Translations under genes and position numbers: made by a program
Notes under the pieces: generated by a model
What the model saw: only the letters and a program-made list of their open reading frames with translations
The model's database searches: none
Told to the model about the DNA's origin: nothing
Shown: piece after piece, positions 1 through 47,176 of the stretch
How positions within the stretch are numbered: the stretch's first letter is position 1
How the letters are laid out: each line of letters starts with the position of its first letter
DNA from: Quercus robur
Lineage: Eukaryota > Streptophyta > Magnoliopsida > Fagales > Fagaceae
Assembly: GCF_932294415.1 (NCBI RefSeq)
Contig: NC_065539.1
Span: 54,083,501-54,147,500 of the forward strand
Reading direction: 5' to 3'
DNA length: 64,000 nt

Positions 1-2884
1 AATGTTTCTCCAGCTCATTACGGTAAGAGAAGCAACCATTGATATATATATATATTACACAAAAGAATTACCAATCAAAAAGAACCATAACCATAACCTG
101 TTCATTCCATAATTCACAACTTTCTCATAACATCAGTACACCAAACCAACATGTTAACCACACTACTTTCTCATGATCATATTCACAGAAGAAGACCTTG
201 ATCCATGTAGAAAACCTATTATATAGGGGTGGGACCATATTGGTCCACTCCAATTTCTCATATGCCATATTCCTTAAATCAGGCCTTCACTCTCAAAAGG
301 ACTCAAATCATGGTAGCAGTTGTTGTCACACCACAGAAGACACTATGAAGCGGTGTGCAGCTTTTGCAGTTTTGAAATCTTTTCAAATCGTATAGCCATT
401 TGTAAACGAAAGGCGTTAAATGCTACAAACCCAAAATCCCACTAGGCAGTTATAAAGCAAATGGAATGAGAAATGAAAAAAAAAAAAAAAAAAAAATCCA
501 TAGACCACCATATCAAGAATTCAGAGAGTAAAATCCAAAAAACAAAAGCTTATAAAACAAATATTAGGGAAAAAATTTCAAGTTTCAAAACCACAACCAT
601 AATGCCATCCAAAACTAAAAATAGATGGACATTTAAATAAATAACCTTAATGTAAAAAGACACACACACACAGAGAAAAGTCCAAAGTTGGTAAAGCAGA
701 CCTAGCCAAAAAGGAAAATCAAAGAAACAAACACAAACATAACTAAACCAATTAGAAGGGGATTGCAATTTGCAAATCAATATGGTCTGAATTTCTAAAT
801 AAACCAAGCTAATAACAGGGCATCAAATTTATAGGTTTTCAAGTTTCCAATGAGCTTAATATGTCAACCACTTAATCTGATGCCTCTATTTAGACTCAAA
901 TCTTCAAATTTATTGAATTAGGCAATAACAGGCCAGCCCTTTAATTCTATGCTAGATGTTCGGTCCATGATGGCCAATTAGGATACCTGTTCTATTAGCT
1001 TCATTAAGCTTTCATTATAGATCTTGCTGCCAATGAGTTGTCCAGTAATGTGATAATCTTTTCATCCAACTCGTTTTGGAAATAGTTGAAAAACTACTAT
1101 CAGGAAACCATCTCACCCATGGGGAGCATACCATGAAAATAAAGTCTTTATATGCAGGAAAATGGAGCAAGGGTAAATCCACTCATTCATCAATATACAC
1201 ACATTCCATATTGCACAATTCTGACGCATATTAGAAGTCTCTGGTCTCCTATTCCAGAAAGTTTTTATTACTTACATCTAGGAAAATTAAGTGGAATGTG
1301 AAAAATGAGCTGACAGTTTCTTTAGTGTGAAACTTTTTTTCTCATGGACAGAATTAGGGTGCTAAATTTTGGATTCTTAAGGATCAGCTCCCCACCCCCC
1401 CTTTTTTTTGTTCCCAAAGTTTTACAATTTGGAAAGTTCAATTAGATGTTTTAAGCTGATGTCTCTTCCAATCAGGTTGCCTATTTAATAGCACCACCAT
1501 TGGGTCAAATTTATCATGATAAATATAAACTTAAATTATTTCAGAAACTATATATCTAATTATATATGCTAAAAAGAACCATCTATAAATAGGAAAAAAA
1601 TAAAAAGATAACAGAGGGTGAGTGGTATTACCCATCAAGAAAATAATTTGGATCACAGCCTTCTAATAACCTGTCCAAGTTTTCTTTAATAATAATATAC
1701 ACCAAAAGAGGTTGGACATTGGTGTAATGGCAAATGCCCTTTGCCCAAGTAATGCGTTATGGGTTTTAGTCTGAGAATCATTCTCTCCAAAATTGGGGAT
1801 AAGGTTATCTACTAACCACCTCTCTCAAACCCCACAAAAGTGGGGAACCTTATGCATTGGTACAACCTTTTTATTTTTATTTTTTATAATATTATACACT
1901 AGAACTATTGAAATTATACATTCATAATTATAGAAGAGTAGAATCATTTATCATAAGGGGGATATACTAGAACGAAGCAGATATCAATTAGGTTCACCTA
2001 AAGGTAAAGGTACCCGTAGCAAATATCACAATTCGCAAAGGGGTAAACTCTATCATTACGTGTTCTGTGCAAATGGTAAAACAAGTTCCCATTCCAATTC
2101 CGGTTTGCATATGACAATGATTGATGTTTCAGAATTCATCAGGTCAAGGGTTGGCTGTTTTCTTATTTTAATAAAATTTTCATTACTTATAAAAAAAATA
2201 CATCAGGTCAATGCTTACAATACACTAATCAACATATTCATTTCCACATAAAAATGAGTAAATACTTTAATTCATAAACTAGATTACTAAAGGGAATACA
2301 TATATTTTCTGTAACTCTAATACAACTACACAAGTATCAAGGACATTAGGATGCTTATCATTTTACTCAACAATAGCATTGAGATCACCATCAACAAGAA
2401 AATAATCAGCTACTCAGGCTTTAACAGCTTGTTTGTGATCAAAAGGTCCAAACAACAATCAAATAGATTGAATGTATCTAGCTTAACACAAAACACAAAG
2501 CAGTCCAAATTAAATCTACTAACTTATAAGCCATTTAAAATCACTTGCAACATTTTTTTTTTTGATAAGTGTCCAGGTGAAAATAAGATATTTATACCTA
2601 ATAATTGCAGGAATTCCCAAGCAGTTATTTTGCTTGATAAATATCATGTCAGTGACTTCCCAGTTCAATCAATCAGTTTTTCAACATCATCAGCCTATCA
2701 ACTTGAGAGCTTCAAATCCAGCTCTAAATAATTTATTTTCCAACTTTTTCATCTCCTCAATCATAATACATACAACAAAACTAGTCCATCTAGGGAAATA
2801 AAAATGGTCTCTTGATTTCTCATATCTCAACACGTACTCTTTCAATACAGCTACATGAATATATTCAACTTGGCCCAACAAAAG
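1..2884 (-). other. Duplicated RPL20 intron sequence, no exon
   Basis: This stretch is the unit 1 counterpart of 25378-28320, which is the large intron of the intact RPL20 gene in unit 2. I see no RPL20 exon here. Exon 2 would lie left of position 1, and exon 1 is missing because homology stops near 2884 and an ARF gene piece follows. About 230-270 bp around 780-1010 is unrelated to the matching part of unit 2 (26275-26540), and unit 2 has about 115 bp near 25495-25600 that is absent here. Open frames in it are short and chance-like. Confidence 0.75.
1706..1885 (+). mobile_element. tRNA-derived SINE (Au-like), unit 1 copy
   Basis: The element begins gaggttggacattggtgta, which contains an A-box-like TGGTGTAATGG. 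A degenerate B-box-like ggttttagtctgagaatc follows, and the element ends in an accttttta tract. This layout matches the plant Au SINE family. Imperfect flanking repeats (aataatatacac on the left, taatattatacac on the right) look like target-site duplications. The same insertion sits at the matching place in unit 2, so it predates the duplication. Confidence 0.7.
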
Positions 2885-2906
2885 TAAGAACAGAGGATGC
2901 TCAGAC

Positions 2907-3356
2907 ATAGGATTTTAGAAGGAAGATCATACGCTGGCAATTGTTGCTTAGACACTTGATTCGTCGTCGCCTCAACCTATACATATTGTAATTCAATCCA
3001 AAAAAAAAAAAAAAAAAAAAACCCACCATTAATAATCAAATATATATATAAATTTGTACTTTATTGTATGAAAAAATATAATAAAAACTAGCATAATCGC
3101 ACGCGCTACCTTTTCGATATGGCCTTGAGGAAAATAGAAAACGAGTTCTCCTTGACGAGGAACAGTGACCAAAGGTCCAGCACAAGCATGCCATAGCTCC
3201 TTGTATATCGCATCCTCTGAATCTAAATCATACACACCGAAAATGTTACATTACAAATTCAAATGATTAATCAGATTGCAAGTTGATTCAAAATTCAAAA
3301 CCCTTGGAATTTAGACCAAAAACTTTACCGGTGACAGGAAAACTCGAAGAAGCCAT
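2907..3356 (-). pseudogene. 5' fragment of an auxin response factor gene (ARF2-like), three exons
   Basis: Three minus-strand exons splice cleanly. Exon 1 is 3329-3356 (MASSSFPVT, donor gtaaag), exon 2 is 3110-3222 (acceptor atttag, donor gtagcg) and exon 3 starts at 2976 (acceptor tatag). The joined reading gives the start of an ARF B3 region: [18 protein letters not shown], then a segment ending [10 protein letters not shown], then VEATTNQVSKQQLPAYDLPS and KILC. ARFs of the ARF1/ARF2 clade have the same order and the same intron after HIEQ. Homology stops near 2907, inside the exon that should continue RVINV, so the B3 domain and everything downstream are missing. The introns are kept, so this is a piece of genomic DNA and not a retrocopy. 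It occupies the place of RPL20 exon 1 in unit 1. A truncated transcript is possible but a working ARF is not. Confidence 0.85.
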
Positions 3357-4800
3357 TTTTCTCTCGAAGAAAATTCAACATGTAAGAATCAGGCCTTATT
3401 GTATGATCGATCTGTTCTTACTTTTCGAATGTGAGTTACTGAGTTTTTGTTTCAGATTATGGAGATTTGATTAGCTTTCAAGTGCCCCAGTTCGATCTAT
3501 ATTTTATTGTTCCGTATCTGATCTTTGACTAGTAATGAGCTTTTTTTTTTCTTTTTTTTGGGTCAAATTCTATTCGAGCAAAAATTCTCTGTGGCTCAGC
3601 AGTTGATCACATTACATCTTTTTTGCATCTGCTTTTGTTGAGCATTATTTTTTCTTCTTCACCCAAAACACTCCGTATTACACTTTTCTGGATAATGTTT
3701 TTTTGTAGACGGTTCAGTACTGAGGAGCAAGTGTGGTGGTCTTTGAAGACTGAGCTGACATAGGCAAGAGAGAGAGATGTCAAGGGAGTTGGTGGTAGGA
3801 CTTTGAATGATGGTGCACTTTCTTTATTTCTGAGTGTGTGTGTGTGTTTTTAATTTATGAATTTTAGATGGCTTTAACATAGGCAATAGATTAAATTCAT
3901 TGTCTAAAAATTACCACTAGAATTATTGGCTTTACATAGGCAATTAACAAATATTGGGCTCTTTCTGAAAGGGCATCTTGAGAAACTAATAAAATGTCTT
4001 GATGACAAAAGGCCAAGCAATGAGTTTTGTAAATTATGCTACCTTTATATTGCCTTATAATTTTTTTATTTTTTTAATCTTTAGTTTAGAAGGCATTACT
4101 TCTCTGCAACAATTATTTATTCACTGTTTTCATTGTTTTATTGTTTTAACTCCATAAGGCCCTATTTGACTAGGCTAGATAAGTTCTTTTTAAGCATTCA
4201 GCTGTTTTGATGTCCTTATATTGGTATTAATTAGATTACCAATTTAAAGTGGAGTTGTTAAAACCTGTTGGTCTAGATATTTATTTGGGATCTCTTTCAA
4301 TACAATCCCTATTAAGACAGCCTTTTTTTTTTTTTTTTTTAATTTTTAAATATATTTTATTTTATTTTATGGGTCCTATTAAGACAACATTGATCCTGCA
4401 TTGTCTCACATTTTAGCATTATAAGGTCTTGGAATCTCCCTTGGGGGCAGTTGCGTGTCTAACATGTTTGTGTGAGAGAGAGAGAGGCTTATAAATTAGC
4501 ACGTGGGTGGAATTTACACTACCAAGAACTATTAGTTCAGTTTATTGTCAGTGTGAACTAGATGATTCTTTTCCTTGGATTTAAAATGATTTCTTGTTCA
4601 TTTACTTTGAAAATTTTCAAGCATGGAATCCTAAGTTACCTCTATTTAGGATTCTTCCTGTTCATCCTTGGCTAAGTTGCCTTGGTAATGGTGGAAAGAG
4701 AATTCATAAAGCCTACTATGTACAAACATCTTTGAAGACATGTTTGTACAGCTCTATTATTTAGATACAATTATTAAACATTGCTTTTCATGTGTTTAAA

Positions 4801-5126
4801 TTTTGGGTAAAATACTATTTTGGTCCCTAAACTTTATTAAAAGTTTGTTTTTCATCCCTAATCTTTAAAAAGTTCTTTTTTCATCCTTAAACTTTGTAAA
4901 GACTTTTTTCAATAGCTTAGAGACAAAAGTAGAAATGAAAAAAGAACTTTTTTCAATAATTTAGGAATGAAAAAAGATATATTTTTTTTTAAGTTTAAGG
5001 ATAGAAATAACACATTTTCAATAGTTTAGGGACAAAATACAAACTTTTCAATAGTTTAGAGACAAAAAACGAACTTCTTAAATTTTAGGGATGAAAAACC
5101 AACTTTTGGTAAACTTTTTCTAATTC
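4801..5126. mobile_element. MITE-like inverted repeat (ggtccctaaacttt type), block B copy 1
   Basis: The left part reads gggtaaaatactattttggt followed by ccctaaacttt. The right part is its degenerate reverse complement, with several tagggacaaa and tagggatgaaaa segments between. This is a widespread class of plant inverted-repeat element. The same element lies at 10597-10872 and 31568-31890, so it was in block B before either duplication. Confidence 0.6.
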
Positions 5127-5245
5127 TTTGTTCCCATCAATGCCAATGAGAAATGTTCTCGAGGCTTGAAGATGGGTTTTCTAATTTTTTATATAATTTT
5201 TACATAGGCTATAAGTCATCTTCATTGGGTAGGATAAGAAAGAAA

Positions 5246-5300
5246 ATGGCGGATGAGAATCAAGTGATTACTTGCCACACTGTTGAGGCTTACGAAAATG
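5246..5300 (+). pseudogene. Orphan thioredoxin h-like first exon
   Basis: The 55 bp from an ATG translate to MADENQVITCHTVEAYEN and end at a possible donor (aaaatg|gtattt). Plant h-type thioredoxins begin with a very similar segment (consensus-like MAEEGQVIACHTVEAW) that often ends near the first intron. No WCGPC active-site exon could be found downstream in this window, so the fragment cannot make a thioredoxin fold. It sits in block B, and its counterpart at 32011-32065 is also open. The third block B copy has only a remnant near 11079. The match is short, so the assignment is moderate. Confidence 0.5.
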
Positions 5301-7385
5301 GTATTTTGACTACTATTCTTCGTTTTTATTTCTGTGTGTGAGTGTGTATTGTCATTAAAAGGGCTTTTGTTAAAAACTAAGCCAAAAATACATTTATACA
5401 CACACAAAAAAAAAAAAAAAAAAAAACAAGGAAGCCAAAAATACAAAGTGGGCATAAAATGTAATAGGTTAAGCAGGTATCAATAATAAAAAAATATATC
5501 TTCATTGTAGATGATTGTAGGTATTTGATGAAGAGCTTCATTTAAAGTGACTGACATCATTCATTATGGAAATTTAACCTTTGGGTTAATGCATTAGCAA
5601 AACCTAACTACTTTGGTTGGAAAATTATGATTTTTGTATTTACTCTTGGGAGATTTTGAACAACAGATTGTATCTTTAAGTCATATATAGGTTCAAAGAA
5701 TCAATATTAGTTACATAGATAAACATAGATTGTATCTTTAAGTCATATATAGGTTCTAAGAATCAATCTTAGTTACATAGATAAACATTGATCGGAGGAG
5801 TTTTTATAATTCATTTGTTAATTTTGTAGATTATTTAAGTTTTCAATTGTAATAAAAATTTTATATGAATGTGATTAGCTACCTTTGACATTTATTTTTA
5901 TTTGTAAGTGTTGTAATAAGCGATGATGATTCAAATGGAAGATCTTTCTTCTTCTTTTTCTTTATTTTATTTTATTTTTGCAATCAAAGAGAGTAGCACG
6001 TGCCACTGCTACTAGTTTCTTTGTAAAAAGCTCGTTGGAGGAGTTTATGAGGTAAATGAAAGACAACCACAAAACAAAACTAGTAATAAAGATGAATTTG
6101 GGCCTAGAAATTTAATACAGAAACTGAGAGAAAGTTGATTCCTATAATTAAGGCTATTTTGCTAGGAAAAAAAACCCTCTTAAATTCCTGCCACATATAC
6201 AAATTAAAAGTTACAAAATACCGCACATTGCACTGCTTGAGGCTTTAAATTTTATCCGTTTACTGTGCCATCTACATAGTTCAAAACAAAAACACAGTTA
6301 AATTGAAAGCGACTGAGGGAGAGAGTCTGATAAACACACAGAGAGAGAGAGAGAGAGAGAGACACAGAGAGAGACAGAGAGAGAGAGAGACAGAGAGAGA
6401 CTGAGTCGATTAGGCACAGAGAGTGGAGAGAGAAAAAACTGAGAAATCTGTCCACCAACTGTGTCAAGCTGTAAGACGGTCTAGGCCCCTGCCACGTCAA
6501 GAATAAACAATGCCTCTGATGGGTTCCTATTCTTTCTCTAACTTTTTTTTTTCCCCACAAATTTAAAGTTAAATTAGTTTTGTTATATGTTTTCAAATTT
6601 TACAATTGCGGTTGGATTTTTGTTCCAGAAATTAGGGTTAAGGAAATCAGAAGTATGATATGTGACTATTTTTATTAAATATTTTCGGTAATGGGTTTGT
6701 TTGAATTCTTCTCTTTTGGATTAAATCATTCAATTTCTTTCTCTGCAGAAATGAAGTGGAATCTTTCTACAATCTAGAGTCTCTAATTTAATCAAAGAAA
6801 AGGTACTAATTTCTTTTCCTAATATTCTCTTCGATTATGGTTTGCTGTCAATTTAGGAATTTGGATTCATGACCCTTTTCCTCTCTATTTGATAAAATCA
6901 AGGAGAACCCCTCACAATATGAAAATCCTACCTGAGTTTTAATGGCCTCTTATCTGTTCTGTTTTTTGTAAGAAGGGGGGGGGGGAGTGAAATTGTGGGA
7001 TTTTGAAATCTGATAGTATGACTTTCTTTATACTAAGTTTATTGCTTTGTAGATTTTAGTTGATTTTTTTTTTTAAAAGAGACTTTTTAAGTCTTGATTT
7101 TGTTGTTTTTGATGTTGGGTTTTAATGAGTTTAAATTGTGAAATTTGAGAGTATAATGTTCTTTGTACAAAGTTGATTACTTTGTAGGTTGTGGCAAAGA
7201 TTAATTTTCTAAGAGATTCCTAAGCTCTGGTTTCGGTGTTTACAATGTTTTGTTTTATTGGCTTTGCATGTAGTATTACATTCTTGAAAGTTAATTAGGA
7301 ATCTGTTTGATATTGAGAACAAATATTAAACAATAGTAAAAGGAATTGCAGCTAGTTCTAAAGTTTTGTTTTTCTGTTTGTTTCA

Positions 7386-8067
7386 TGTAAGGACACAATT
7401 TGTAACGACCCATAATAATGTTGGGTTCGCACGTAAAAAGGCCCAAACAATATCACTTATAGAGCGTAGGTTTGAAAGGTTAGGCCTTGGTCACTGGACG
7501 GTAGTTCGGGCTGGCTCCGGTCAGCGAATCTCGTCCGAGGAGTTTGGGGAGCTCTATGCTCTTATTATTCTCCTCGTTTCTAGGACACCATGGCTGGGAG
7601 GACGGGTTGTCCCCCCCCCCCCCCCCCCTCTCACACTGCCTCTTTTATCCTTTTATACTGGCATTTATCCTCTCACCTGCGTCCACGTATAAGCTCAATT
7701 TCCTAGGACTTATGACCTGTCCTGTCAGCCCATACCTAGAGTGGTTGGGGGTGGTTGTAAAAGCTGAAGAATATGACTCTGTCAGGTGCAGAGTATTGAA
7801 TGACAGTAATGGCAGCTTTCCCTTTGTCCTTGGTCGTTATACTATCAAGCATCTCCTTCTCTATTGACATTGATATTTTTAGATCTTTTCCCATACTGTT
7901 CCTATACCGTTTTTGCCATTTCTTCCAGGGGGACATCGGATATGCCGAGGACAGAATCATCTTCAGCTGCGTCTCAAGACTATTTGGACTTTTGTTACCC
8001 ATCCTCGGCTCGGGCCTTGGGCCCCAACGTAAAAATGGGCTAGGGCCACAAATTATTGGGCCCCACA
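7386..8067. mobile_element. Solo LTR of an LTR retrotransposon
   Basis: The element starts TGTAAGGACACAATTTG and ends GGGCCCCACA, so it has TG...CA ends. It is bounded by an exact 5-bp target-site duplication TTTCA (7381-7385 and 8068-8072). The matching site in unit 2 (about 34087-34093) is empty and carries one TTTCA. About 682 bp with no internal coding sequence or second terminal repeat indicates a solo LTR left by recombination. It inserted after the segmental duplication. I cannot assign the superfamily. Confidence 0.88.
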
Positions 8068-8888
8068 TTTCAAATTTCAATTATGTTTGTTTGTTTACTT
8101 TGCTAATTATGGATTACTTTTGATATTTAAATACCATGAAATATCAGTAAGTTAAGGGGATAATTGGAGACTCTGTCATGTAGTCACATGAGAAAATTCA
8201 GTAATTTAAGGCTTTACATGGTACTTTACTCAATTGAGATTTTTTCTTCTAAATTTGTGAATGATGGAAGTATATGATTTACCTAAATTAAAGTGTAATA
8301 TATCAAATTCTATTACACATCTTTTTTGCATCTGCTTTTGTTGAGCATTTTTTTTCTTCTTTTTTACCCAAAACTCACTGTATTGGGATAATGTTTTTTT
8401 TTTTTTTTTTTTTTTGGGTAGAGCCAAAACTACGGTTCAGTACTCAAGGGCAAGTGTGGTCTCTGAAGACTGAGCTGACATAGGCAATATAGAGAGATGT
8501 CCAGGGAGATGGTCGTAGGTCTTTGATTGATGGCGCACTTTCTTTATTTCTTTTTCTTTTTATTTTTTTTTAATGAATTTTAGATGGCTTTAACATAGGC
8601 AATAGATTCAACTGAGTGTAAAAATTACCACTAGAATGATTGGCTTTACATAGGCAATTAACAAATATTGGGCTCTTTCTGAAAGGCATCTTGACAAACT
8701 AATAAAATGTCTTGATGACAAAAGGCCAAGCAATGGGTCTTCTAAATTATGCTATGTTTATGTTGGCTTATAATTTTTTTTTTAAATCTTTAGAAGGCAC
8801 TACTTCTCTGCAACAATTATTTATTCATTATTTTCAATGTTTTAACTCTATAACTCATTTTTAAGCATTCAATGCTTTAACTCTATAA

Positions 8889-9768
8889 GAGCATTCACAT
8901 CCGGTATTTACAAAAAATTCTATTTTACCATCTCAAAACTCACTTTATCATTTATACCATACAATTTTTCAACACTTCCAACATCTCAACTTTTATTTTC
9001 TTATTCTACTCATTAAAATAATATATCTACCCAATAAAATAATATATTCCCAAAATATATCTATTCTCTCCCATCTCTCTCCTCTCTCTAATTTTTACCT
9101 CTCTTCCACTGAAACCAAACCTGGCAGAAATCACTGTCCAAAAACCATGTAGAAATCCAAACACGGCAAACCCAAACAAAACCCATGGCAAACCCACAGT
9201 CCAACGCCGATCTCCACACCACACCCAAACACCGACTACCCACGCCAATCCGAACCCATGCAACCCACGACAAGCCTAAACAAAACCCCGGCAAACCCAC
9301 AGCCCAACGCTAATCTCCACACCACACCCAAACACCGATCTCTGCGCCAAACCCCAAACGTCGATCTCCACGCCACCACACTAATCTGCAACAAGAGAGA
9401 GAAGAAAAATAATGAGTAGGTGGTGGTTTGCCATGGCCGGTGATAGTGGGTCAGGCCATGGTGTGGTAGCTATGGAGTTTTGAGTTTGAAGAGAAGGAGT
9501 GAGTGGGGACTGAAAGGAGAGGGAGAATCATAGATTGAGAGATGGAGAGAGAGACGTGAGACAGAGAGAGGAATTGACACAATAAAATATTACTTTTTTG
9601 TTTTAGAATTGTGCTACAGTGCAATTCTAAAGGTAGAATTGCACTCTAGCACTATTGCAAAAAATTTGCAATAGTTGAGTTTTACAATTCCGAATGAAGC
9701 ATGGTTTTTGTGTGAACATGGTAAAGTTGCTCTAGATATGGCATTTAGCATGCCCAGTGCAGATGCTC
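8889..9768. mobile_element. Non-autonomous DNA element with GAGCATTC-type ends
   Basis: The left end GAGCATTCACATCCGG matches the reverse complement of the right end (GAGCATCTGCACTGG). The element interrupts block B copy 2, whose other copies (near 4200 and 30975) lack it, so it inserted after that copy arose. The interior has a roughly 60 bp segment duplicated at about 9178-9237 and 9281-9340, then a purine-rich tract. A related end sequence occurs in the element at 18878-19645. I see no clear target-site duplication and no transposase. Confidence 0.7.
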
Positions 9769-10596
9769 TTTGGCATTTTTAAATAGCTGGCCTATGAGAA
9801 ATTAGATTACCAATTTAAGGTGGAGTTTTTGACACCTGTTGGTCGAGATATTTATTTGAGATCTCTTTCAATACAATCCCTATAAAGACAACATTTTTTT
9901 TTTCTATAGGTTCTATTAAGACAACATTGATCCTGCATTATCTCACATTTTAGCATTATAAGGTCTTGGAATCTCCCTTAGACAGTTGCGTCTCTAACAT
10001 GTTTGTTAGAGAGAGAGAGAGAGAGAGTGAGAGAGGTTTATAAATTAGCACATGGGTGGAATTTACACTAACAAGAACTATTAGTTCAGTTTATTGTCAA
10101 TGTGAACTATATGATTATTTTTCCTCTGATTTAAATGATTTCGTGTTCATTTACTTTGAAAATTTTCTAAGTTACCTCTCTTTAGGATTCTTCCTGTTCA
10201 TCCTTGTCTAAGTTGCCTTGGTAATGGTGGAAAAAGAATTCATAAAGCCTACTATGTCATTATAATAATATACTTACTGTCATAGATGTGGCAAGTTATG
10301 TTTTTGGAGATCTATCTTTGATTTTTGCCTATCTATCCCTCCCTACAAGTTATCCATTGCAATCTTGTCTTGATTTCAAGGTTAATAACAGAGCATTATA
10401 TGATTACTTTGAATTTTTTTTTTAATTACAGAGCATTTGCATTTCCTTTTCTTTTGATATGTTCTATATGTGATTACTTTGAAAGAGTTTGAGTGACTGC
10501 ATCTTCTCCATTTAAATGCTTGTTCCATTTTGTTAAGCACATATTGTACAGCTCTAAAAATAGACATAATTTGCTTTTCACGTGTTTAAGTTTTGG

Positions 10597-10872
10597 GTAA
10601 AATACTATTTTAGTCCCTAAATTTTACCAAAAGTTTATTTTTTGTCTCTAAACTATAAAAAATTCTTTTTTCATTCTTAAACTTTGTAAAGAGATTTTTC
10701 AATAGCTTAGAGACAAAAATAGGCATGAAAAAAAATAACTTTCTTCAATAATTTAGGGATGAAAAAATGATATTTTTTTAAAGTTTAAGGATAGAAATAA
10801 AATATATTTAATGGTTTAGGGATGGAAAATGAATTTCTTAAATTTTAGGAATAAAGAAAAACAAACTTTTTT
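10597..10872. mobile_element. MITE-like inverted repeat, block B copy 2
   Basis: This is the second copy of the inverted-repeat element also seen at 4801-5126 and 31568-31890. It is somewhat shorter through small deletions. It came along with block B and is not a separate insertion. Confidence 0.58.

Positions 10873-12053: not shown

Positions 12054-12058
<5 letters not shown>

Positions 12059-12087
<29 letters not shown>
12059..12087. repeat. CT dinucleotide microsatellite
   Basis: An uninterrupted run of CT repeats lies just before ATGGCAGTTAGC. The unit 2 counterpart near 37282-37296 is shorter. The run sits in a leader-like stretch. Confidence 0.8.
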
Positions 12088-36076: not shown

Positions 36077-36084
36077 AGAAATAG

Positions 36085-37120
36085 TTACTCCCAAAGATTA
36101 TTAGTTTTTTATGGCTATGTATGCATAATAGCGTGCCTGTGAGGGATGTTCTTGCTGCCAGGGGCATTAATTGCAGCAGGTTATGTCTAGTTTGCAAAAA
36201 TCAAGTAGAGTCTATGGACCACTTGTTGAGAGAGTGTTTGTTTGCACAACATTTTTGGTCTGAGATGGGGGTTTCTCATTTTTTTTATGGCCAGGCACAC
36301 TCAGTGTTTAGATGATTGGCTCTATGAGAATTGTCTTAGCAAGCGGACTCATCAGAATCACATTCTGGGGAGTGCTATATTTCCTTTTGCCATTTGGAAT
36401 CTTTGGAAACATCGTAATAGAGTGATGTTTGATAATGCCCCTCTTAATCTCAATCTTCATAGCTATTGTCCTACCCAAGCTGTGGAGTTTTTCTTTTGTG
36501 TTGATAATATGAGGAAAGCTAAACAGAGAACTATTGTCCGGGTGAAATGGTTCAAGCCCCCTGTTGGATGGTTTAAACTAAATTCGGATGGGGCTTCATG
36601 TGGAAACCCAGGCAAAGCGGGAGGTGGTGGTCTTATAAGGGATTGCAACAGGTTGTGGATCAAAGGGTTTGCGAGGTCTATTGGATTTGCTACCAGCATT
36701 ACTGCTGAGTTTTGGGCATTAAGAGATGGGTTGAAGCTGGCCTTGAATGCAGGAATCCAGCGGCTGATTGTGGAGATAGATGCGAAAGTGGTGGACCTTA
36801 TCAAATCTAATGCAGCCACTAACAAGCCATTTGCCCCTCTCTTCTATGATTGCAGGTGCTTGCTGACAAGGTTCATCCAGGCCCAAGTGGTTCATGTGTA
36901 TAGAGAAGGCAATCGTTGCACAGATGTACTTGCGAGATGGGGTAGCACCATGGCGGAAGCTTTTGCTGTTTTTGATAACCCGCCAAGTCCTGATGTTGTG
37001 CATTTAGTTAATATGGATAATGTTGGCATGTTTGTTAATAGGATAACTGAACTTGATCTCACCTCTACTGTGAGATAGTCTGTTTTTTGTATTTCCTCTT
37101 AACCAAGAAAAAAGAAAAAA
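36085..37120 (+). mobile_element. 5'-truncated L1-type LINE, 3' end with RNase H domain
   Basis: The conceptual product contains the zinc-binding tail of plant LINE reverse transcriptases (CLVCKNQVESMDHLLRECLF). After a frame change near 36310 comes an RNase H domain with its acidic residues in place (FKLNSDGAS, TAEFWAL, VEIDAK, RCTDVLA). The 3' end is A-rich (aagaaaaaagaaaaaaag). An 8-bp target-site duplication AGAAATAG flanks it (36077-36084 and 37121-37128), and unit 1 has the empty site. Only about 1 kb of the element is present, so it is a dead-on-arrival copy inserted in unit 2 after the duplication. Confidence 0.88.
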
Positions 37121-37922
37121 AGAAATAGAGGCAGACGCTTCCTTCCCTTCTTCGGCCCAATATAGAGTATAGTCCCACTCCCAACTTTCCACTTTCTCAG
37201 CCCACACTTATTATTATGTGACGCTACCCCATATCTTCTTTCCAATAAACCTACTTGTATTCTTACTCATTACCCTCATCCTCTCTCTCTCTCTCAGAGA
37301 GAATGGTAGGTATCTAGAAAATTGTATTGCAGTTCGGAAATCTCATGGTGAGGTGAGTAGTACATCTTAATATCTGTAGTCTCTCTGTCATAAATTTTTT
37401 TTTTTGCTAATTAAATCCAATTCCTTTTGGTGGGACTGGGAGCTCATTAATTTTGATTGCCGTGCGCTTTAATTTGTTGGCCTTCCATCCTTTTATTGTT
37501 CCCTCCACCTTTGTAAGCATTCAATTCATGAATATATATATATAGCTCCGCTCCTTGTAATTCTTCTCCTCTTTCCCAATATTTGCTGGGTTGATGTTTT
37601 GTTGTCACTATTACTAGCTTTGCGCAATACTAAGTTCCGTTTGATTTTTAATTTTAAGTTACATTCAAACATTCCCTTATATATATATATATATCAAACT
37701 CTCCACATATTTGAATTGAAATACATCATCATATACTAACTAAATACAGTACATCATATACAAACAAATGAAATATCACTCACAATCTTCCTAAAAAAAA
37801 AAAAATCATTTGCTCAGTGATCTAGTCACCTGGCTACAATACATAATTACAAGCAATCAAACACCAATCAATCTTGGGCTTGTCTTCAATATGAACGAAA
37901 ATGGGGTTGGAAGTCCTTGTAT

Positions 37923-40900
37923 CTTTTTCATGTGTAGGTAGCTCAGAAATTGTCTTTTTGGAACAGGTATCCACTTCACAGTCCAACCAATTGGCCAAGA
38001 TACCATTCCAAATCCAATGCACTCACCCCATTGCCCCCAATTCAACCATTCTGTACCTGCAAACTTCTTCAAAAATTCTACCATAACCACTTGAAGGACT
38101 ATGGTTATGGCTATGATCCCCAAAAACAACTTATTCCTATGTATCCCTTTAAACACATTCTTCTTCTCAAGCTTTCTTGCATTGAATTCATTGAACACTT
38201 GACAAAGGACGATAGTATTGAAGATCAATGTGTCATTTACCTTCTTAGTCACACCAAAGATTGATTCACCTTTGAATTGCAAGGTCATGAGGACGATAAT
38301 TTGACACAAAGCTTGGGCTAAGAGATTTCTCCACATTATGTTGGTAATTTTTTTGCTAATCTGCAATGCATTAATAATCAAAACTGTGGAATACAAGAAA
38401 AGGTATCTTCCAAACAAACAGCAGCTAGGCTAGTGGGAAGATTACCCGAATTGAAAAAACAAGACACATTACCATCTAAAGCAAACTTTGCTGCTGAATG
38501 AGTAGCATAGTTTCTGCTTCTATTGATCCAATTAAAACTACAAGACGAAAAAGACAAAGCAAGACATCTAATATCAAAGATAAAATGTGAAATGGCCCAT
38601 ATGGGGTTATCCGAGCACTCGTGGATGGCATTAATGCATACTTTCGAATCACCTTCAAAAATGACATGGCTCCACCTTTCTCGGGTAGCTAGTTGAATTG
38701 CCCAAGCCATTGCCTCAGCCTTAGCCTACAGGGGGGACCTCTTTGGTGTTATCCTAGCCCAAATATTTAGCACCGCGCCTTGGGAGTTTCTGGCGACAAC
38801 CGCTAAAGCTGCGTTAGAAGAGGAGATCGCCACATCGACGTTAATCTTGATAGTTCCTGGAGGTGGGGAAGACCATTTTGGAGTGGAAGGATCTGGATTA
38901 GAATGCTCCGTTTTGGAGAAGATGAGATAGCATTCATGAACCTTGGAGTGGATAATTTGAATAGACGACTGTAGGTCCACCTCTCCTTTATGATTCAACA
39001 CAACATTGCGAGTATGCTAAATCTCCTCAAGGGTGAAGGCCATGTTGAGGGAAACCGGCCACTGATCTTGGGCTTGATAGAGAGCTAATGGAGGTTTTAG
39101 GATTAGCTTTATGATGTCCGCAGATGTCGAAAGGTGCAACTGGCTTCGTCATCAACTCCTCGGTGGGCTTCTCCGTTACAAGAGCTAGAGCACCCAATGT
39201 GTCCATAATTAGGTTTACCCATAATAACTGAACTGCTGTTAATGGGACTTCACCAGCTGAGACAGCTGCCACAAAGTTGATCACAAGAGCAACAACATTC
39301 ACGGTGAGTTGGAACTGAATGAACTTCTGGATGTTGTTGTACACACATCTTCCCCACCTTAAAACTCTAGCAACAGAGGCAAAGTTGTCATCCAAAATGA
39401 CAACATCTGAGCTCTCCTTTGCCACTTCGGTGCCCTGAATTCCCATTAAAAGTCCTACATCAGCTTCTTTCAATGCTGGTGCATCATTTGTGCCATCCCC
39501 AGTGACTGCAACAACATGACCTTTTTGTTTCAAACATTCTACCATCAGTAGCTTGTCGAAGGGAGAAGACCTTGCCATCACACAAATTTTATCAACTTTC
39601 TCCATTCTCTCCTTTAGTGTGTAGTTTCTGAATTCGATGCCTTCTACCATTGCTCCACTCATGTCTTGACCAATCCTCAGTATTCCATATTCAACAGCAA
39701 TAGCTTTTGCTGTGAAAACATTGTCTCCAGTGATCATTTTGATGTTCACACCTGCATTCTGGCAATTTTCCACAGCTTTCTTTACCCCTGGACAACATGG
39801 GTCCTTTATACCCACCAATCCTAATAGGGTCATACCATCTTCTTCTATCTTTTTTTGCTCCATATCATGTTCTTGATCTTCTTCTGAAATTTTCTTATGT
39901 GCAAAAGCAATGCACCGGAGGCTGCTAGTTGCCATACCTTGAATTATTTGCTAAAATTTCATCTTTTCACCATCATCTAGATCTTTCATAATTCCAAAAA
40001 CATCATAGTAACTTGAACACATTTTCAAAATCATCTCTGCGGCTCCTTTCCAGTGTACTTGGATTGTGTTGTCTATCTTTCTCCTTGTTATGACTCCGCT
40101 TCGTTTCTTCTGAGAATTGAATGCTTCAACGTAAAGAATCTTACAGCTTTGCTTCAATAGTTCCATTTCCATGTTTAGCTCCAGAACAGCCCATGAAAGA
40201 ATTGCTTGTTCAGTGGGACTACCTGAGAACTCAATTTCAGATCCTAAAGTAGGTCTGTAAACACTACCGGTTGTGTTTAGAGCAACTCCTTCTTGGACCA
40301 GTTTGAGAATATATGGATTAATTGATGAGAAAGTAGCCGGTACAAAAGATTCTTTCCCTAGCCAAAATTTAGTCACCTTCATTTTATTCAGCGTGAGGGT
40401 GCCTGTTTTGTCAGTACAAATGGTGGTGGCTAAGCCCATGGTCTCACAAGCAGAAAGCTTTTGCACCATAGCCTGATCAGCCATCATTCTTTTCATGGAA
40501 TAAGCAAGCGTAAGTGTCACAGCCAAAGGCAAACATTCTGGAATTGCAACCACGACTATAGTAACTGTAGCAGCTACAATCCCCACCACAGCATTTAGTA
40601 CATCATTAACCTTGGTGCTGCTGCCATTGAACTCTTTATTTCCATTCTCATCTTTAGTATTCCCTGTGAAATATCGAACCAACAAGACTACAAGAACTAG
40701 GAAAGCAACTGCCAAACCAACCTTACCTATTGATGAAGTTAGCTTGTTGAGCCGAACTTGTAAAGGTGTTTGTTCATTGGTATCACGACTAATTGAGCTC
40801 ATCATCTCGCCCCATGTTGTGTTCATCCCAACCAAAGTGACAAGCATCTGAGCATAGCCATCAACCACCTTAGTACCAGAAAACAAAAATGGATGACTGC

Positions 40901-41735
40901 AATTTACTTCTCCATGTTCACTTTCCCCTGTCATGCTAGATTCGTCCACTTGCAGTGAATACCCGTCTAAGAATAGCCCATCAGCTGGGACTTGATCTCC
41001 AATCTTTAAGCAAATGATATCTCTAACTACAATTTCAAATATTGAAATAGTTGACGCCGACCAGCCCTCACATCAATGTGAATATTGTTGCTGACTTTGG
41101 ATAACTTGTCAAATTGTTTGTTTTGCTTAAAGTTACTAATGGTAGAAACAACAATGACAAGAAATATAGCAACAAATATGCTTCCACCGTCATACCATCC
41201 TTCTTTTATTCCATTCTCTTTAATGCCAAATACCAGAGAAAGTACAGCACAGCCTAGAAGGATGAGAATGGTAAGATCCTTGAAGGCTTCCACAAAAAAA
41301 TGGAAGAAGCTCTTTGTAGGTGGTCTTTTATATGTGTTTGAGCCAAAAGCATCGTGTCGGCGGGCAATGTCTTCATCACTGCCATGAATCCCACATTCAA
41401 CGTTTGTTTGGAGAGTGACTGCTAGTGCATCAGTCCCTCCAATGTTTTGGAGTCTTTCAATCTTTTTATCTTTTACAAGGTTAGTGAGTGTTGGTTGATC
41501 AACTTTGAACCCAATGTCTGGGTTGAGATCCAAAATGACGAAAGATGGAGAAGGTGAAACCTTGAGATTTTTTTGGAGTAGAGAATCTTTGAAAAGGATA
41601 GAAGGGCTCTAGAACAATATATGGAAACAAAAGCGGAGTGCCATCTTTTATTGGGTGTGCTAAGGGAGTGTTGTGCACCAAGTAAAGACTCAATGCGGTC
41701 CTTGTTTTGTAGGATAATATCCTTGAAATGGTTTG
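37923..41735 (-). pseudogene. Ca2+-ATPase pseudogene (ACA12/13-like), unit 2 copy
   Basis: It aligns along its whole length with the intact pump at 12757-15831. The ATG is lost at the N-terminus. A frameshift follows the calmodulin-binding segment (near 41565), another lies in the actuator domain (near 41050), and a stop falls before QIIQGMATSS (near 39950). A LINE scrap of 792 bp (38349-39140) replaces about 24 bp between M6 and M7, and the normal stop codon is read through into 32 extra codons. PEGLP has become PECLP in M4, while DKTGT and TGDGTND are kept. Several long segments are still open, so decay is moderate. It cannot make a full pump. Confidence 0.94.
38349..39140 (-). mobile_element. 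LINE 3' scrap (RNase H domain) inserted in the ATPase pseudogene
   Basis: The minus-strand reading gives IKINVDVAISSSNAALAVVA, then AKAEAMAWAIQLA and VIFEGDSKVCINA, the RNase H layout of plant L1-type LINEs. One in-frame stop lies between the two parts (near 38727). The 3' end on the minus strand is gcaaaaaaa, directly joined to ATPase sequence. Compared with the intact gene, about 24 bp of target are missing, so this was insertion with a target deletion. It is a different LINE subfamily from 36085-37120. Confidence 0.82.
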
Positions 41736-41831
41736 CAAAGCATAATAGGAGTAAAAAAAAATGATGATATTTAAGAAAGCAAGGAACTAACAATAATGTA
41801 GTAGTAATCACAAGAGGAAGAAAAGCAAGAT

Positions 41832-42893
41832 TGTAAAGTTGTGATTTACAACTATGTTTTATGTTGGCTTTATTCCATGACAAATAGTGTTGTACTTGCT
41901 CTAATTTTGTTCCTTGTATTTTGTGGAATTTTATTGTCTTGGGTTTAGTATTAAGTTGGTGAAGACTCAAGCTTAAATGAAGAATCAGTGGATTTCGCGA
42001 GAAGCTCACGAGAAGCTAAGCCGCGAAAGGGCATGTGAGGAGCACATGACTGGAAGCTGAAGAGTCGTGCTAGGCTGTCGTTTTCACGAGTGTCTCGTGG
42101 GTAAGGCCTTCCCGCGAGACAGTTGCGAAACATTCTGCCTGGAGGATTTTTATGTGTGAATTCCTTACCCTTCACCCATACTATATATACCCTCATTACC
42201 CACAAATGTAAGAGAGGCCATTCAGAGAGAAAAACCCTAGATAGGTTTTCTACAACACACACACCCATCTTTTTGAGAGAAAGCTACTCATCCTTAGTGA
42301 GAATTAATTGTAGCCTCTTCTCCTTCCCTTTCCCATTATCATACCTTGAGAGGAGATTTGTACCCAAACACAATCCACACATTTTCAGAGTGTAGTGAGT
42401 GTTTTTGGTGTTGCTGGGAAGTATTGGAAGATGCCAAGGTTGGTAGATGCAACATGGAACTTGTTGCGGGATCTGGAGAGCTAGACAAGACATGGTTCCG
42501 AGAAGTCTTGTTGGAGTAGGAGCTTGGAGGGCTTAGGTACAAATGGTAGATTAGGCTTGGAGGGTCTCTTGCTTACCAATATATCCCAACTGATTGTCTA
42601 GTGGATCAATTACCGCTTGGAGGGCGGCGGAGAGGTTTTTCGCCGAGTTCTTCGGTTTTCTCTTCAATAACACGTTTCGGTGTTATCTGTGTTTGCATCT
42701 CTCTTCCCTACTCTTGTTCATTTCATTTTACTGTTGTGTTGCTTTAAATATGAATTAGAGTAGCTCTTTTGTTTGTTTGCTTGCGTTTACACTATTCCAC
42801 ACTTAGTATTAAGTTAGTGTAAAATTAATCAAGCCATAATTTGAATTGGGGGTCTAAACAAGCTCTTGTATTTTCACACATTTCGAGCATTCA
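41832..42893. mobile_element. Probable solo LTR (Copia, SIRE/Maximus-like)
   Basis: Unit 2 departs from unit 1 here. The insert starts TGTAAAGTTGTGATTTAC, carries a TATA-like ctatatata near 42180, a leader-like stretch and a tail ggtgttatctgtg, and ends near gagcattca. The text is typical of long Copia LTRs of the SIRE/Maximus group. No second LTR or internal coding DNA is present. I could not find a clean target-site duplication, so the right end is uncertain by some bases. Confidence 0.6.
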
Positions 42894-43053
42894 ATAGATA
42901 ATATGGATATAAATGGAACAGAGGAGAATGGAGATATGTGGAGATCGAATATAGTGCTAGCTAGTAGATATGAGAATTGAAGTTGCAGAGAGGGTGGTGG
43001 TTTTTATAAGGTACGTAGATTTCCGAAGTTTGAGATGGAATGTGGGAACATAA

Positions 43054-43615
43054 GGGGCTATTTGACTTCACCTTTTTGATTACTCAATTTCCATCACTCA
43101 TCACTCATCACTCATAACTCATCACTCATCACTCAATTTTTCACACCTGTTTGGCATCATCACCCAATTTCCATCACTCAATATTTTTCATACTATTTGT
43201 GGGCCCATACTTGTCAGCCGGTGCAGCTTTTTTTTTTTTTTTTTTTTGGTTTTCAGTACCCAAACTCACCGAAACTTAAAAAAAAAAAACCCAGAACTGA
43301 AGACCGAACAAGTGAAAAAAAAAAAAAAAAAATCAAAAGGTGGTCAAAAGTTGCAGTTGTGGGTCCCTCCATGTGTGTTTATTTACGGAAATGCCATTAA
43401 GTTATGAGTTATGGAAACTGAAAACAGCCAAAATGTATTTTCAGTTTCCATAACTCATAACTCAAAAATCAGAGAATTGAGTGATGGAAATAGAGTTATG
43501 GAAACAGAGTTATCGTTTGCCAAACAATCTTTTTGCTATGGGTCCCACCATTTTTGTGTTATGAGTTATGTAAATTGAGAATTGAGTTATCAAAATTTGC
43601 AATCCAAATAGCCTC
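43054..43615. mobile_element. Tourist-like MITE with CATCACT repeats
   Basis: The ends are GGGGCTATTTG on the left and CAAATAGCCTC on the right, flanked by TAA on both sides (43051-43053 and 43616-43618). Inside are a catcactcat microsatellite and inverted subterminal copies (ataactcaa / ttgagttat). There is no coding sequence. Confidence 0.8.
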
Positions 43616-43979
43616 TAATTATTCGGGTTTCTGCCCCTTTCTTACTAAGCAACTCAAAAGTTGTTATGTGAAAAAAAGATATGAAAAAGAAAAATTCGGT
43701 CACCTAACAGTAACAATAACAGAAAAATTTGGTCACCTACAGTAACAGTAACAGAATAATTCGGTCACCAAAAACGTGTCGGGCAGTTACGACGCTCTCA
43801 AGTAATTGATCAATCAACGCGCTGGGTTGTGAACCCATAGACCATAGTACCATCATTTTTATACCCTCAAGGTTCCTACTTTCCTTCCACTTCCAGGTAA
43901 GCAAACGGAAGCTTTCTACACCCTTCTGGGCTGTGTTTCCCCAAAAATGTTTTGAAATTGATGGTCGACTGGAAAAGAA

Positions 43980-44126
43980 GGGGTATTTGGTACATGCACT
44001 TAAAACATGTGTTTTATTGTTTAAAAATATGTGTGAAAATACGTGTGAGTAAAAAAGTGTGAAAATATGTGTAATATTGTTTAAAAACTGAAAACATGTG
44101 TTTGAGTTGTCATACCAAACGGGGCC
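43980..44126. mobile_element. Short MITE-like inverted repeat
   Basis: The left end ggggtatttggtacatg pairs with the right end cataccaaacggggcc, and internal acatgtgttt segments are also inverted. It is about 150 bp with no clear target duplication. Confidence 0.55.
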
Positions 44127-45480
44127 TAATATTTCTCAAGTTTCAAATGAATGTCGCTCAAGTTTTACCATGATCTGTGGTCACCCCGAATCATAGTAGC
44201 TATGGTTCAATCTAATATTCCTTAGCGGGGAGTGCTTCTATGGTCACACCTGGGAGGGTGAGTTACAATGGTCTCAAAAAAAAAAAAAAAAAAAAAAATC
44301 AAAATCAAAATCTTCCCATGATCTTGGTTTTCCAAACTTTATGGATTTTAGGATAATAGTACTTCTGAGTGTCTGGGCTTATAGGACTGTTATGTTCCTT
44401 GAGTTTTTAGATTACCAAACTTCTACGGGTCACAAAGTGCAAAACAAGTCTGGTTTTTATCTAAAAGTCTAAAACCCTTTGCAAAAGATTACAAATAAAA
44501 TATCAAATGAATTGAAACACAAACACAACACCATTGTACTAAGTCTCAAATCTTCAACGTCAATCTCCGTCTCTTCTTCCCTCGTCTTTCTCCCTTTAAA
44601 CCTTCTTCTCTCTCCAACCTTAAACACTTGAAAATGTTTTTCAAAGCATTCTTAGAAATGCAACCAAACACTTGGATATATATATATATTTTTTGTAGTG
44701 TTTAGGGCAATTGATTTTTTTATTTTTTTTTAATTTTTGATAACAATAATTGTTGGTCAACTTTATATTGTTTTTCAGTTAACCGTAAAATAAAGACACT
44801 TCTAGTGAAAAATTGTTTACAATTAATTTCATTTGCCATAAAAACATTTTCTGTCTCACCAAAGCTCATTAACCGAACCTCCATTCCTCCCCATTGTGTG
44901 GCCACTCAACTACTAATGTCCTTGGTCTCTGGTTGCCAATCACTATTTTTTTATTCTAAAATTTTTTTTTTTTAAATTATGTGTACTTGGAAGATGAGAA
45001 AATGCGGAGAAATAGTAAAAACAAATTTTGTAGTATTTTTGAAAATGCAACCAAATACTTAAAAATATTTTACAGTTAAAAAATATTTTCCATTGAATCA
45101 AACCCAGCCTAAAACAAATGAAACCTTAGACTTGCATTCACATCAACTCATAAAAAATAGCATGATGCCCATTTAGCCAATGAAGCCCAAATAAACACCC
45201 ACGCCTATTAATGAACCTGCAAAATGAGATTCTACTTCAGTGCTTGTCCAAATTTAGGAGGCACCGTAGCTTATGTATTTCATTTGCTTATTCATTTCTT
45301 CAAAAAAATTTATTCATTTATTGTCATGGCTCTCTCTCTCTCTCCACTCTATAGTTTCTTCTTTTTCTCTCTTAGGCTATTTTTGGCAACATGTAAAGTA
45401 ATTTTCAAATGTAAAATATTTTCAGTTTCAATTTTTAACAAAATAAACGGTATCCAAACACACATTATGTAAGATGAAAC
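44127..45480. other. AT-rich spacer, no gene
   Basis: I see no gene. Fragments such as aaaatattttac and accaaacacttgg recur at about 44620-44700, 45010-45110 and 45375-45465, and look like eroded MITE arms. Confidence 0.45.
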
Positions 45481-47176
45481 ATCTATACAGCTTCTTGACT
45501 GATGCGTTGCTATTTCATTTGAGGGCCAACCCCCGCTCCTCCTATTTACTAATATTTTACATTTGGATCAGGATGTCTTAAGTCATAAGTCATACCCCTT
45601 TCAAAAAAAAAAAGTCATAAGTCATACAATACACGCCTTCGCTTTTGCAAGTCAAACACGAAACCTTTCATATTCATCAGATATCCCACGAAAAAAGGTT
45701 TACTCGTTTTATTTCTTTTAATCAAAATAGAGAATTATTAATCCGAACCACTCACAATCACAATCCATTACTTGATCCACACCATACATAAGCTTGTAAC
45801 AAAATAGTGTCAAATCAAATTCATAATTGAGATTAGAAAGGGCAATGGTCGGAACTCTTGGACAATTCAATTTGAGAAAAAATTGCCAAATGCCCTTTTC
45901 GGGCAAAAATAGCAGCTCTTTGCCCTCTTTTCCAAACTAATTAGGGAAATGTCCATCTTTTGAAACTTGATTTGTGATAAATCGAGTTAGACCCTATAGA
46001 GGCCTTTTTAAGGAGCCTATAGTGACGTTTTTAGGACCTATAGTGGCGTTTTGTAACTCGACCTCTATGAAATTAAGTTATAGGTAAAAAAAATTGCCTA
46101 TAACTCGATTTCATGGAAGTCGAATTACAAAACGCCACTATAGGTCCTTAAAACGTCACTATAGGTCCTAAAAAACGGCGCTATAGGGCTCCAGAATTTT
46201 TTTTTTTTTTAAACTCGATTTATCTCAAATCAAGTTACAAAATATGGACATTTCCCTAATTAGTTTAGAAAATGGGGCAAAAAACTGCTTAAAAATATTC
46301 TAGAACATGAAAGAAACTAATTGAGACAACTCGATCATTTCATACTTCCCCAAAACCACGAAGTGAGAGTTCATTTTGATGTGATTGAAGACCAGTCCAC
46401 ACGACACGAGTTGAAATTTTAGAACCTATATCATATTTGGAGTTCAATGGTATTTTCTTAGAGGAAAAGGAATGTTACGTGGCTTATTTATATTAGTTAA
46501 TTATTTGTATAAGCAGTGTTTCTAGTCAGTTGTGATTCATTCAAATTAGTTTGATTAGATTTGGAATATGTTATGACATATTCAAATAAGTTAACTTGCA
46601 TTACAATTAGTTTTCTTGATAATAAATTATATGAAGCTAGTGTTTTTTTTTTGTTTTATTTGGAAGTTAGTCTTGTATAAATTCAAATGTGGACTATAAA
46701 TCTCTCTCAAGAAAAAAAAAATGTGGATGATAAAATAAAAATTAATTATGATTTTCCAAATCACGTATAAATGTTTAGCTAGTCTGTCTTAGATATTTCT
46801 TTAAAAAAGCCTTACTTTTTTTCCCCTCTTAACTAAAATAGAATAAACAATAGATTTGTCCAAAAACAAATTAACATAACACTCACAAATTAATACATTA
46901 CTCGTTTCATTTAAGTAAACTCAAATTTTTACTCTAAAACACCCATAGAGCTTAGGTTGGGGCAGGAAGGAGCTTCTATTTACCAAATTTTTTCTTAGAA
47001 AACGATGCTATGACTTCCTTTTATGCCAATAAGAAAATTATGATTTTTTTAATATTTTGTCACTACCTAGAAATGTTTGAATTTGTTGAAAGATATTGCT
47101 GTAGTAAGGTTCACGCAAATAATTAAAGTGGTCAACATTAGTTCAACTTCCAAATTCAATAATAACTTCCGCCAAT
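45480..47176. repeat. Block D, unit 2
   Basis: This block matches 16500-17575 and is interrupted by an insert at about 45673-46427 that carries the inverted-repeat element 45905-46290. No gene is seen. Homology with unit 1 ends at cgccaa near 47176. Confidence 0.75.
45905..46290. mobile_element. MITE with long inverted arms (cctatagtg type)
   Basis: The arms are about 170 bp each and centred near 46090. The outer part ccaaactaattagggaaatg at about 45933 is mirrored by catttccctaattagttta at about 46248. Internal segments cctatagtgacg, cctatagtggcg and taactcga also recur inverted. It lies within the part of unit 2 that is absent from unit 1. Confidence 0.78.

What the first reader, a model, noticed from the sequence alone, without database searches (positions are those of the whole stretch)
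1..47176. Direct segmental duplication with complementary gene loss
Unit 1 keeps the intact Ca2+-ATPase but only intron DNA of RPL20. Unit 2 keeps intact RPL20 but a broken ATPase. One functional copy of each gene therefore survives, on different units. Such reciprocal loss is expected when dosage of neither gene needs doubling, and it creates presence/absence hazards if haplotypes recombine.
Basis: partly seen in the sequence, partly recalled or inferred. Interest (0 to 1): 0.75.

Follow-up and report, generated by a model that had tools for sequence, protein, structure and literature searches.

The report
ATPase array beside patched ribosomal gene
Two side-by-side copies of a plant chromosome segment are real, but they are one end of a much larger array of calcium-pump genes; the second copy of a mitochondrial ribosomal gene lost its first exon when a scrap of an unrelated gene from another chromosome took that exon's place.

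Summary
The window holds a real direct duplication (unit 1 to window 17534, unit 2 21890-47175; noncoding divergence mostly 6-10%). Unit 1's Ca2+-ATPase is intact and unit 2's is broken.

Two points change the story. First, the window is the left end of a ~210-kb array with 12 ATPase copies plus shorter scraps; 5 of the 12 have long open frames, so the copy in unit 1 is not a lone survivor. Second, unit 1 does not hold "only intron" of RPL20 (mitochondrial bL20m). Its exon 2 lies just left of the window, intact: 3 synonymous differences and no amino-acid change against unit 2. Only exon 1, found once in the genome, is missing.

In unit 1 that 1,915-bp stretch is replaced by 496 bp. Of these, 477 bp are a 95% copy of the 5' end of an auxin-response-factor gene on another chromosome-scale contig, preceded by short inverted copies of nearby DNA: the signature of break repair with templated filler, well after the duplication.

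So RPL20 is a genuine one-copy loss with a readable cause; the ATPase half is ordinary birth and death in an array. The patch leaves ARF exons 1-2 in frame with RPL20 exon 2; no evidence that this is expressed.

The parts
1..17534 (.). Unit 1, the part inside the window; homology to unit 2 continues left of the window to about C6:54079084
   Evidence: Self blastn blocks
21890..47175 (.). Unit 2
   Evidence: Self blastn blocks
12760..15831 (-). ATPase copy c1 (unit 1): intact intronless P-type Ca2+-ATPase, 1,024 aa
   Evidence: One open frame; Pfam Cation_ATPase_N, E1-E2_ATPase, Cation_ATPase_C; best solved relative Calcium-transporting ATPase 8, plasma membrane-type
37926..41718 (-). ATPase copy c2 (unit 2): pseudogene with frameshifts between codons 43 and 60 and at 238-240, a stop near 39951, and an insertion at 38349-39140
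   Evidence: tblastn frames, ORF list
38349..39140 (-). 792-bp insertion (in place of 24 bp of unit 1) with a reverse-transcriptase-like (RNase H-type) coding scrap, splitting c2
   Evidence: Gap between aligned blocks; Pfam RVT_3 E 1.1e-12 on 38378-38725, no family on 38726-39016
28742..28927 (-). RPL20 (bL20m) exon 1, the only copy found in the genome
24946..25137 (-). RPL20 exon 2 of unit 2; a second intact exon 2 of unit 1 lies just left of the window (C6:54083079-54083270)
25138..28741 (-). RPL20 intron of unit 2 (GT...AG)
1..2884 (-). RPL20 intron remnant of unit 1, continuing left to the intact exon 2
   Evidence: Blocks at 87-91% to 25579-28326; the short first block 81%
28327..30241 (.). 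1,915 bp present in unit 2 only: RPL20 exon 1 and upstream DNA; apart from itself only short matches in the genome
2904..3380 (-). 477-bp patch in unit 1: copy of ARF exons 1-2, intron 1 and part of intron 2 (451/477 identical, 8 substitutions, 18 gap positions) from C3:45926856-45927314
   Evidence: ARF identity
2885..2903 (.). 19-bp filler: with 2880-2884 it contains a 15-bp inverted copy of 3411-3425, overlapped by a 10-bp inverted copy of 3210-3219
3110..3222 (-). ARF exon 2 within the patch; ends in phase 0 at a GT donor, in frame with RPL20 exon 2
59963..61555 (.). Two short scraps of further ATPase copies, in opposite orientation to each other

Best explanation
This is the left end of a tandem array of intronless plasma-membrane-type Ca2+-ATPase genes that grew by repeated duplication, unequal exchange and gene conversion. 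A duplication at this end also carried the neighbouring bL20m gene (RPL20). Both RPL20 copies apparently stayed functional for most of the time since. Then a double-strand break in unit 1 removed 1.9 kb with exon 1 and its upstream DNA. The repair copied a few bases from the opposite flank, a few from the ARF template in inverse orientation, then 477 bp of an ARF gene on contig C3, and joined the ends. Independently, unit 2's ATPase decayed by frameshifts, a stop and an insertion, as several other copies of the array have. Shown: anatomy, copy numbers, foreign origin of the patch, inverted micro-copies, order of events by divergence. Inferred: break repair by template switching (polymerase-theta-type end joining with synthesis-dependent copying), past function of both RPL20 copies, and lack of function of unit 1's exon 2 now.
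For: Array: 12 ATPase copies on one strand over ~210 kb, 5 with long open frames. c5 is a mosaic of c1-like and c2-like parts: 13 of 136 informative sites c1-like before nt 1024, 94 of 119 after; 0 of 1000 permutations reach this. RPL20: exon 1 once, exon 2 twice; the exon 1 stretch has no second copy. Exon 2 differs at 3 of 192 sites, all synonymous, against 66 of 929 in the rest of the same alignment block (Fisher p 0.0016) or 55 of 883 without a poorly aligned edge bin (p 0.007). Patch: 451/477 identity to C3, and homology ends sharply at both sides. The 15-bp inverted copy of the far flank was reached in 0 of 2000 single-base shuffles, the 10-bp ARF copy in 9 of 2000. Timing: patch 8 substitutions in 459 aligned sites (~0.017) against noncoding divergence of 0.064-0.10 in 8 of 10 blocks. 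Mechanism precedent: plant end joining leaves templated fillers that map to the opposing break end (passages of PMC10923293); foreign segments enter as filler in plants (passages of PMC4423477 and PMC3445842).
Against: No outgroup species or other haplotype was available, so the ancestral state and ages rest on within-genome comparison. ARF exons in the patch may be constrained in the source gene, so 0.017 may understate the age. The right junction shows no clear microhomology. The shuffles keep base content only and are not corrected for the several targets tried. The 3381-3919 block is oddly similar between the units (K2P 0.029); a three-way comparison over 3541-4719 did not show whether this is conversion or constraint. 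ATPase Ks (0.20 overall, 0.07-0.48 along the gene) disagrees with flank divergence, so no single duplication date fits.
Confidence: 0.85

Rival explanations
1. True reciprocal loss: one two-gene duplication, then complementary loss of one ATPase and one RPL20 copy because neither gene needs double dosage.
For: Within the window alone the pattern fits: intact ATPase with broken RPL20, and the reverse.
Against: The ATPase exists in 12 copies within ~210 kb, 5 with long open frames; c2's nearest relative over its first third is c5, not c1.
Confidence: 0.08
2. Assembly artefact: the two units are alternative haplotypes of one locus placed in tandem.
For: Tandem arrays are a known trouble spot for assemblies (recalled); no reads were examined.
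Against: Noncoding divergence mostly 6-10% and ATPase Ks 0.20, a foreign patch in one unit only, a stretch between the units without homology blocks linking them (17535-21889), no N in 257.5 kb. The oak genome paper likewise used divergence beyond the allelic level and read coverage to confirm tandem duplicates (passages).
Confidence: 0.04
3. Unit 1 is not dead: the patch created a chimeric gene in which ARF exons 1-2 splice to RPL20 exon 2.
For: Same strand, start codon and GT/AG splice sites present, phase 0 on both sides, an uninterrupted 110-aa frame, and exon 2 without an amino-acid change.
Against: A frame match has about a 1 in 3 chance. Too little time has passed since the patch for absence of changes to mean much (about 1 expected, my own estimate from 0.017). 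Only 24 bp of ARF sequence upstream of the ATG came along, and no promoter is known. No RNA data.
Confidence: 0.04

Closest known systems
Tandemly duplicated gene arrays of long-lived trees (oak, eucalyptus), PMC6086335 and PMC9018854
   Same: Local duplicates of mixed ages, local rearrangement, intact and decayed members side by side (passages)
   Different: The words 'ATPase' and 'calcium' do not occur in the main text of either paper (supplements not seen); the host species here is not identified
Filler DNA / patch repair of double-strand breaks in plants (PMC10923293, PMC4423477, PMC3445842: passages; Wicker et al. 2010: seen only as an entry in a reference list)
   Same: Deletion with an inserted copy from a distant locus and short inverted copies of the opposing flank
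   Different: A natural event that removed one exon of a duplicated ribosomal gene and left a foreign gene's first exons in frame with the remaining exon
Reciprocal loss / divergent resolution of duplicates (recalled)
   Same: Each unit keeps a gene the other has lost
   Different: One of the two genes has several further open-frame copies, so the losses are not complementary in effect
Plant ACA12/ACA13 cluster of autoinhibited Ca2+-ATPases (PMC5920303, passages)
   Same: Single-exon frame; a plant plasma-membrane Ca2+-ATPase (ATPase 8) is the best solved relative
   Different: A large local array; subfamily not tested by a tree with named relatives

Membership tests
Tandem segmental duplication | Direct, collinear homologous units next to each other | tested here: met
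Reciprocal gene loss after duplication | Exactly one functional copy of each gene remains, on different units | tested here: not met
   RPL20 yes; ATPase no, 5 of 12 copies with long open frames
Filler-DNA double-strand-break repair | Deletion combined with insertion copied from elsewhere | tested here: met
   1,915 bp replaced by 496 bp, 477 bp of it from C3
Filler-DNA double-strand-break repair | Short templated copies or microhomology at junctions | tested here: met
   15-bp and 10-bp inverted copies at the left junction; right junction shows no clear microhomology
ACA12/13-type Ca2+-ATPase | Intronless gene | tested here: met
   1,024-aa single frame
ACA12/13-type Ca2+-ATPase | Groups with ACA12/13 in a tree of named ACAs | not tested
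   Best solved match is ATPase 8; no ACA12/13 sequence was compared
Mitochondrial ribosomal protein bL20m | Ribosomal_L20 family, closer to mitochondrial than to plastid L20 | tested here: met
   PF00453 E 3.3e-42; bL20m 9evs E 6.3e-69 against bL20c 28jw E 6.9e-27 and chains named chloroplastic about E 4e-16

The most novel reading that the evidence does not exclude
A chromosome-break patch built a new gene in one step: the start codon, first two exons and splice donors of an auxin response factor were copied into a redundant RPL20 and now splice in frame to its last exon, giving a 110-residue ARF-bL20m hybrid, with duplication providing the freedom to do so.
Probability: 0.04. Interest if true: 0.65.

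Novelty: new member of a known kind. Interest (0 to 1): 0.3.

Why it matters
It is a roughly datable natural example of how a duplicated plant gene is lost: not by slow decay but by one break repair that copied part of another gene into the gap, in the same step making an in-frame hybrid. It also warns that gene-loss patterns read from a fixed window can mislead, since the second exon 2 and the extra ATPases lie just outside it. The sole RPL20 exon 1 sits in a recombination-prone array, so its presence across individuals is worth checking.

Tried and rejected
Rejected: a clean two-unit duplication. Unit 1's ATPase is closer to array copies c7 and c10 (Ks 0.056, 0.067) than to c2 (0.204). Undecided: a conversion tract beside the patch. 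The low divergence at 3381-3780 (8 of 389; Fisher p 0.003 against 76 of 1363 in bins 3781-5280; p 0.0001 against 108 of 1568 with the later bins 22/89, 10/100 and 0/16 included) overlaps a stretch where a third copy is also similar. Rejected: the unchanged protein of unit 1's exon 2 as evidence for present function; too little time has passed since the patch. Searches used three outgroup rows in the wrong orientation; their outgroup values are void and were redone. Dropped before counting: the 12 ATPase copies leave out shorter scraps of the tblastn list (near reg 93463-95042, 116898-117176, 127853-128125, 154700-156293, 166115-166646 and 222181-223765; reg = window + 33500). The DNA search scored 40 of 73 candidates, so its counts are lower bounds. 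Literature, full-text searches: 'ACA12, ACA13, tandem' 10 papers, 9 listed, none with oak in the title; 'auto-inhibited Ca2+-ATPase, tandem, oak' 1 paper, on a moss; 'Ca2+-ATPase, tandem duplication, Quercus, ACA13' 0 papers. These do not exclude a report under other names. Species: genome-search hits fall on 12 contigs plus the plastid-like C42, which would suit 12 chromosomes, as in oak (recalled); not shown. Rfam at gathering scores and ARAGORN: 0 matches in the window.
Full report
What was claimed. It read this as complementary loss.

The duplication is real. Self-comparison gives 13 collinear blocks between 1-17534 and 25377-47175 at 81-94% identity, with gaps of up to several kb between them. 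With neighbouring sequence the homology runs left to about window -4416 and 21890. Substitution divergence is 0.064-0.10 in 8 of 10 blocks; the other two are a low 0.029 at 3381-3919 and a high 0.40 over 100 sites just upstream of the ATPase. Inside unit 1 there is an older partial repeat, 3614-6111 against 8317-11882 at 73-83%.

The window cuts off the picture. It is C6:54083501-54147500 of a 785.7-Mb plant genome in 42 contigs. In the 257.5 kb around it, protein search finds 12 ATPase copies, all on the minus strand, from C6:54096260 to 54305942, and at least six shorter scraps, some inverted. Five copies have long open frames covering nearly the whole protein (c1, c5, c7, c10, c12: 1,016-1,098 aa from the first methionine). 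c4 lacks its first 75 codons but is otherwise open. The other six are broken, c11 only near its end (914-aa frame). The genome DNA search also shows 12 matches of at least 1 kb there, and two at 78-79% identity on C5 (40 of 73 candidates scored). The right flank was not read.

ATPase history. c1 is close to c7 and c10 (Ks 0.056, 0.067) and further from c2 (0.204). c2 groups with c5 in the tree (support 100/100); the two C5 copies fall beside c3, c8 and c11 (99/99), so the array's oldest splits may predate, or have exchanged with, that locus. c5 is a mosaic: before nt 1024, 13 of 136 informative sites match c1; after it, 94 of 119 do; 0 of 1000 permutations are as strong. c8 and c11 also reach 0 of 1000, c10 5 and c4 7; c3, c7 and c12 show no clear break (112, 195 and 51 of 1000), and c6 and c9 are intermediate (24 and 22). 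c1-c2 Ks falls from 0.48 in the first 128 codons to 0.07 in the last. The array has therefore exchanged sequence, and no single date fits c1 and c2. c2 carries two frameshifts, a stop and a 792-bp insertion with a reverse-transcriptase-like scrap. Its loss is one of several in the array.

RPL20. The protein is mitochondrial bL20m: Ribosomal_L20 at 3.3e-42, best solved match bL20m at 6.3e-69, against 6.9e-27 for a bL20c and about 4e-16 for chains named chloroplastic. Unit 2 has a complete two-exon gene of 125 aa with GT...AG ends. In the whole genome, exon 1 is found once and exon 2 twice; the two further matches are plastid-type, at 39-40% identity, one with a stop. The second exon 2 belongs to unit 1 and lies 230 bp left of the window, intact. 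It differs from unit 2's at 3 of 192 sites, all synonymous, while the rest of the same block differs at 66 of 929 (Fisher p 0.0016), or 55 of 883 without a poorly aligned edge bin (p 0.007). Both copies were thus probably under selection for most of their history.

How exon 1 was lost. Between the last shared intron base (2884 / 28326) and the next shared base (3381 / 30242), unit 2 has 1,915 bp with exon 1, found nowhere else apart from short matches. Unit 1 has 496 bp instead. Of these, 2904-3380 match C3:45926856-45927314 with 451 of 477 positions identical, 8 substitutions and 18 gap positions. The C3 gene is an auxin response factor: the copied exon, queried with the source's residue at its end, matches ARF1 at 1.3e-15, and the following C3 exons show pieces of the B3 domain, each below Pfam's cut-off. 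The C3 sequence differs outside both ends of the match. Left of it, 2880-2894 is an exact 15-bp inverted copy of 3411-3425 across the gap (0 of 2000 single-base shuffles), overlapped by a 10-bp inverted copy of ARF 3210-3219 (9 of 2000). Template switching during repair of a break explains this; the right junction has no clear microhomology. Plant end joining is known to leave fillers from the opposing break end, in forward or reverse-complement orientation (PMC10923293, passages), and foreign segments can enter as filler (PMC4423477, PMC3445842, passages).

Order of events. The patch has diverged from its source by about 0.017, the units from each other by mostly 0.064-0.10. On these rough clocks the loss came in the last quarter or so of the time since duplication, which agrees with the unchanged protein of exon 2.

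A possible hybrid. The patch brought the ARF start codon, exon 1 (28 nt), exon 2 (113 nt) and donors on the same strand as RPL20 exon 2. Spliced, they give an uninterrupted 110-residue frame. One in three such patches would be in frame by chance, about one amino-acid change would have been expected since (my estimate), and no transcript data are at hand. I give 4% to this being an expressed, working gene.

Conclusion. The duplication and the RPL20 loss are real. The reciprocal-loss reading fails on the ATPase side. What is worth keeping is the clear record of one gene copy lost by a patched chromosome break.

Noticed in passing
window 47395-50366: A 29-bp minisatellite in two inverted arms meeting near 48950, just right of unit 2
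   Followed up: no
C6:54167447-54173344 (loci L014, L015): ATPase copies c5 and c4 are joined tail to head; c4 lacks codons 1-75, and in several plant ACAs the N-terminus holds the autoinhibitory calmodulin-binding part (PMC5920303 passages)
   Followed up: partly
C6:54143298-54151414 (window 59798 onward), C6:54204532-54213760 and C6:54272016-54280323: A stretch of several kb recurs three times about 60-68 kb apart, with ATPase scraps in the same arrangement: a higher-order repeat of the array
   Followed up: no
window 52099-52540 and 59220-59661: A 442-bp direct pair at 99.1% identity 7.1 kb apart, perhaps the two ends of a young LTR element
   Followed up: no
window 52961-53659: 93-bp tandem repeat, 7.6 copies at 90%, inside the stretch bounded by the 442-bp pair
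   Followed up: no
G000:C6:27289-27549: A plastid-type rpl20 copy with one TGA near the other end of the same contig, probably plastid DNA in the nucleus
   Followed up: no
window 3381-3580: Nearly identical between the units (2 of 192 sites) right beside the patch; conversion during repair or constraint could not be told apart
   Followed up: partly
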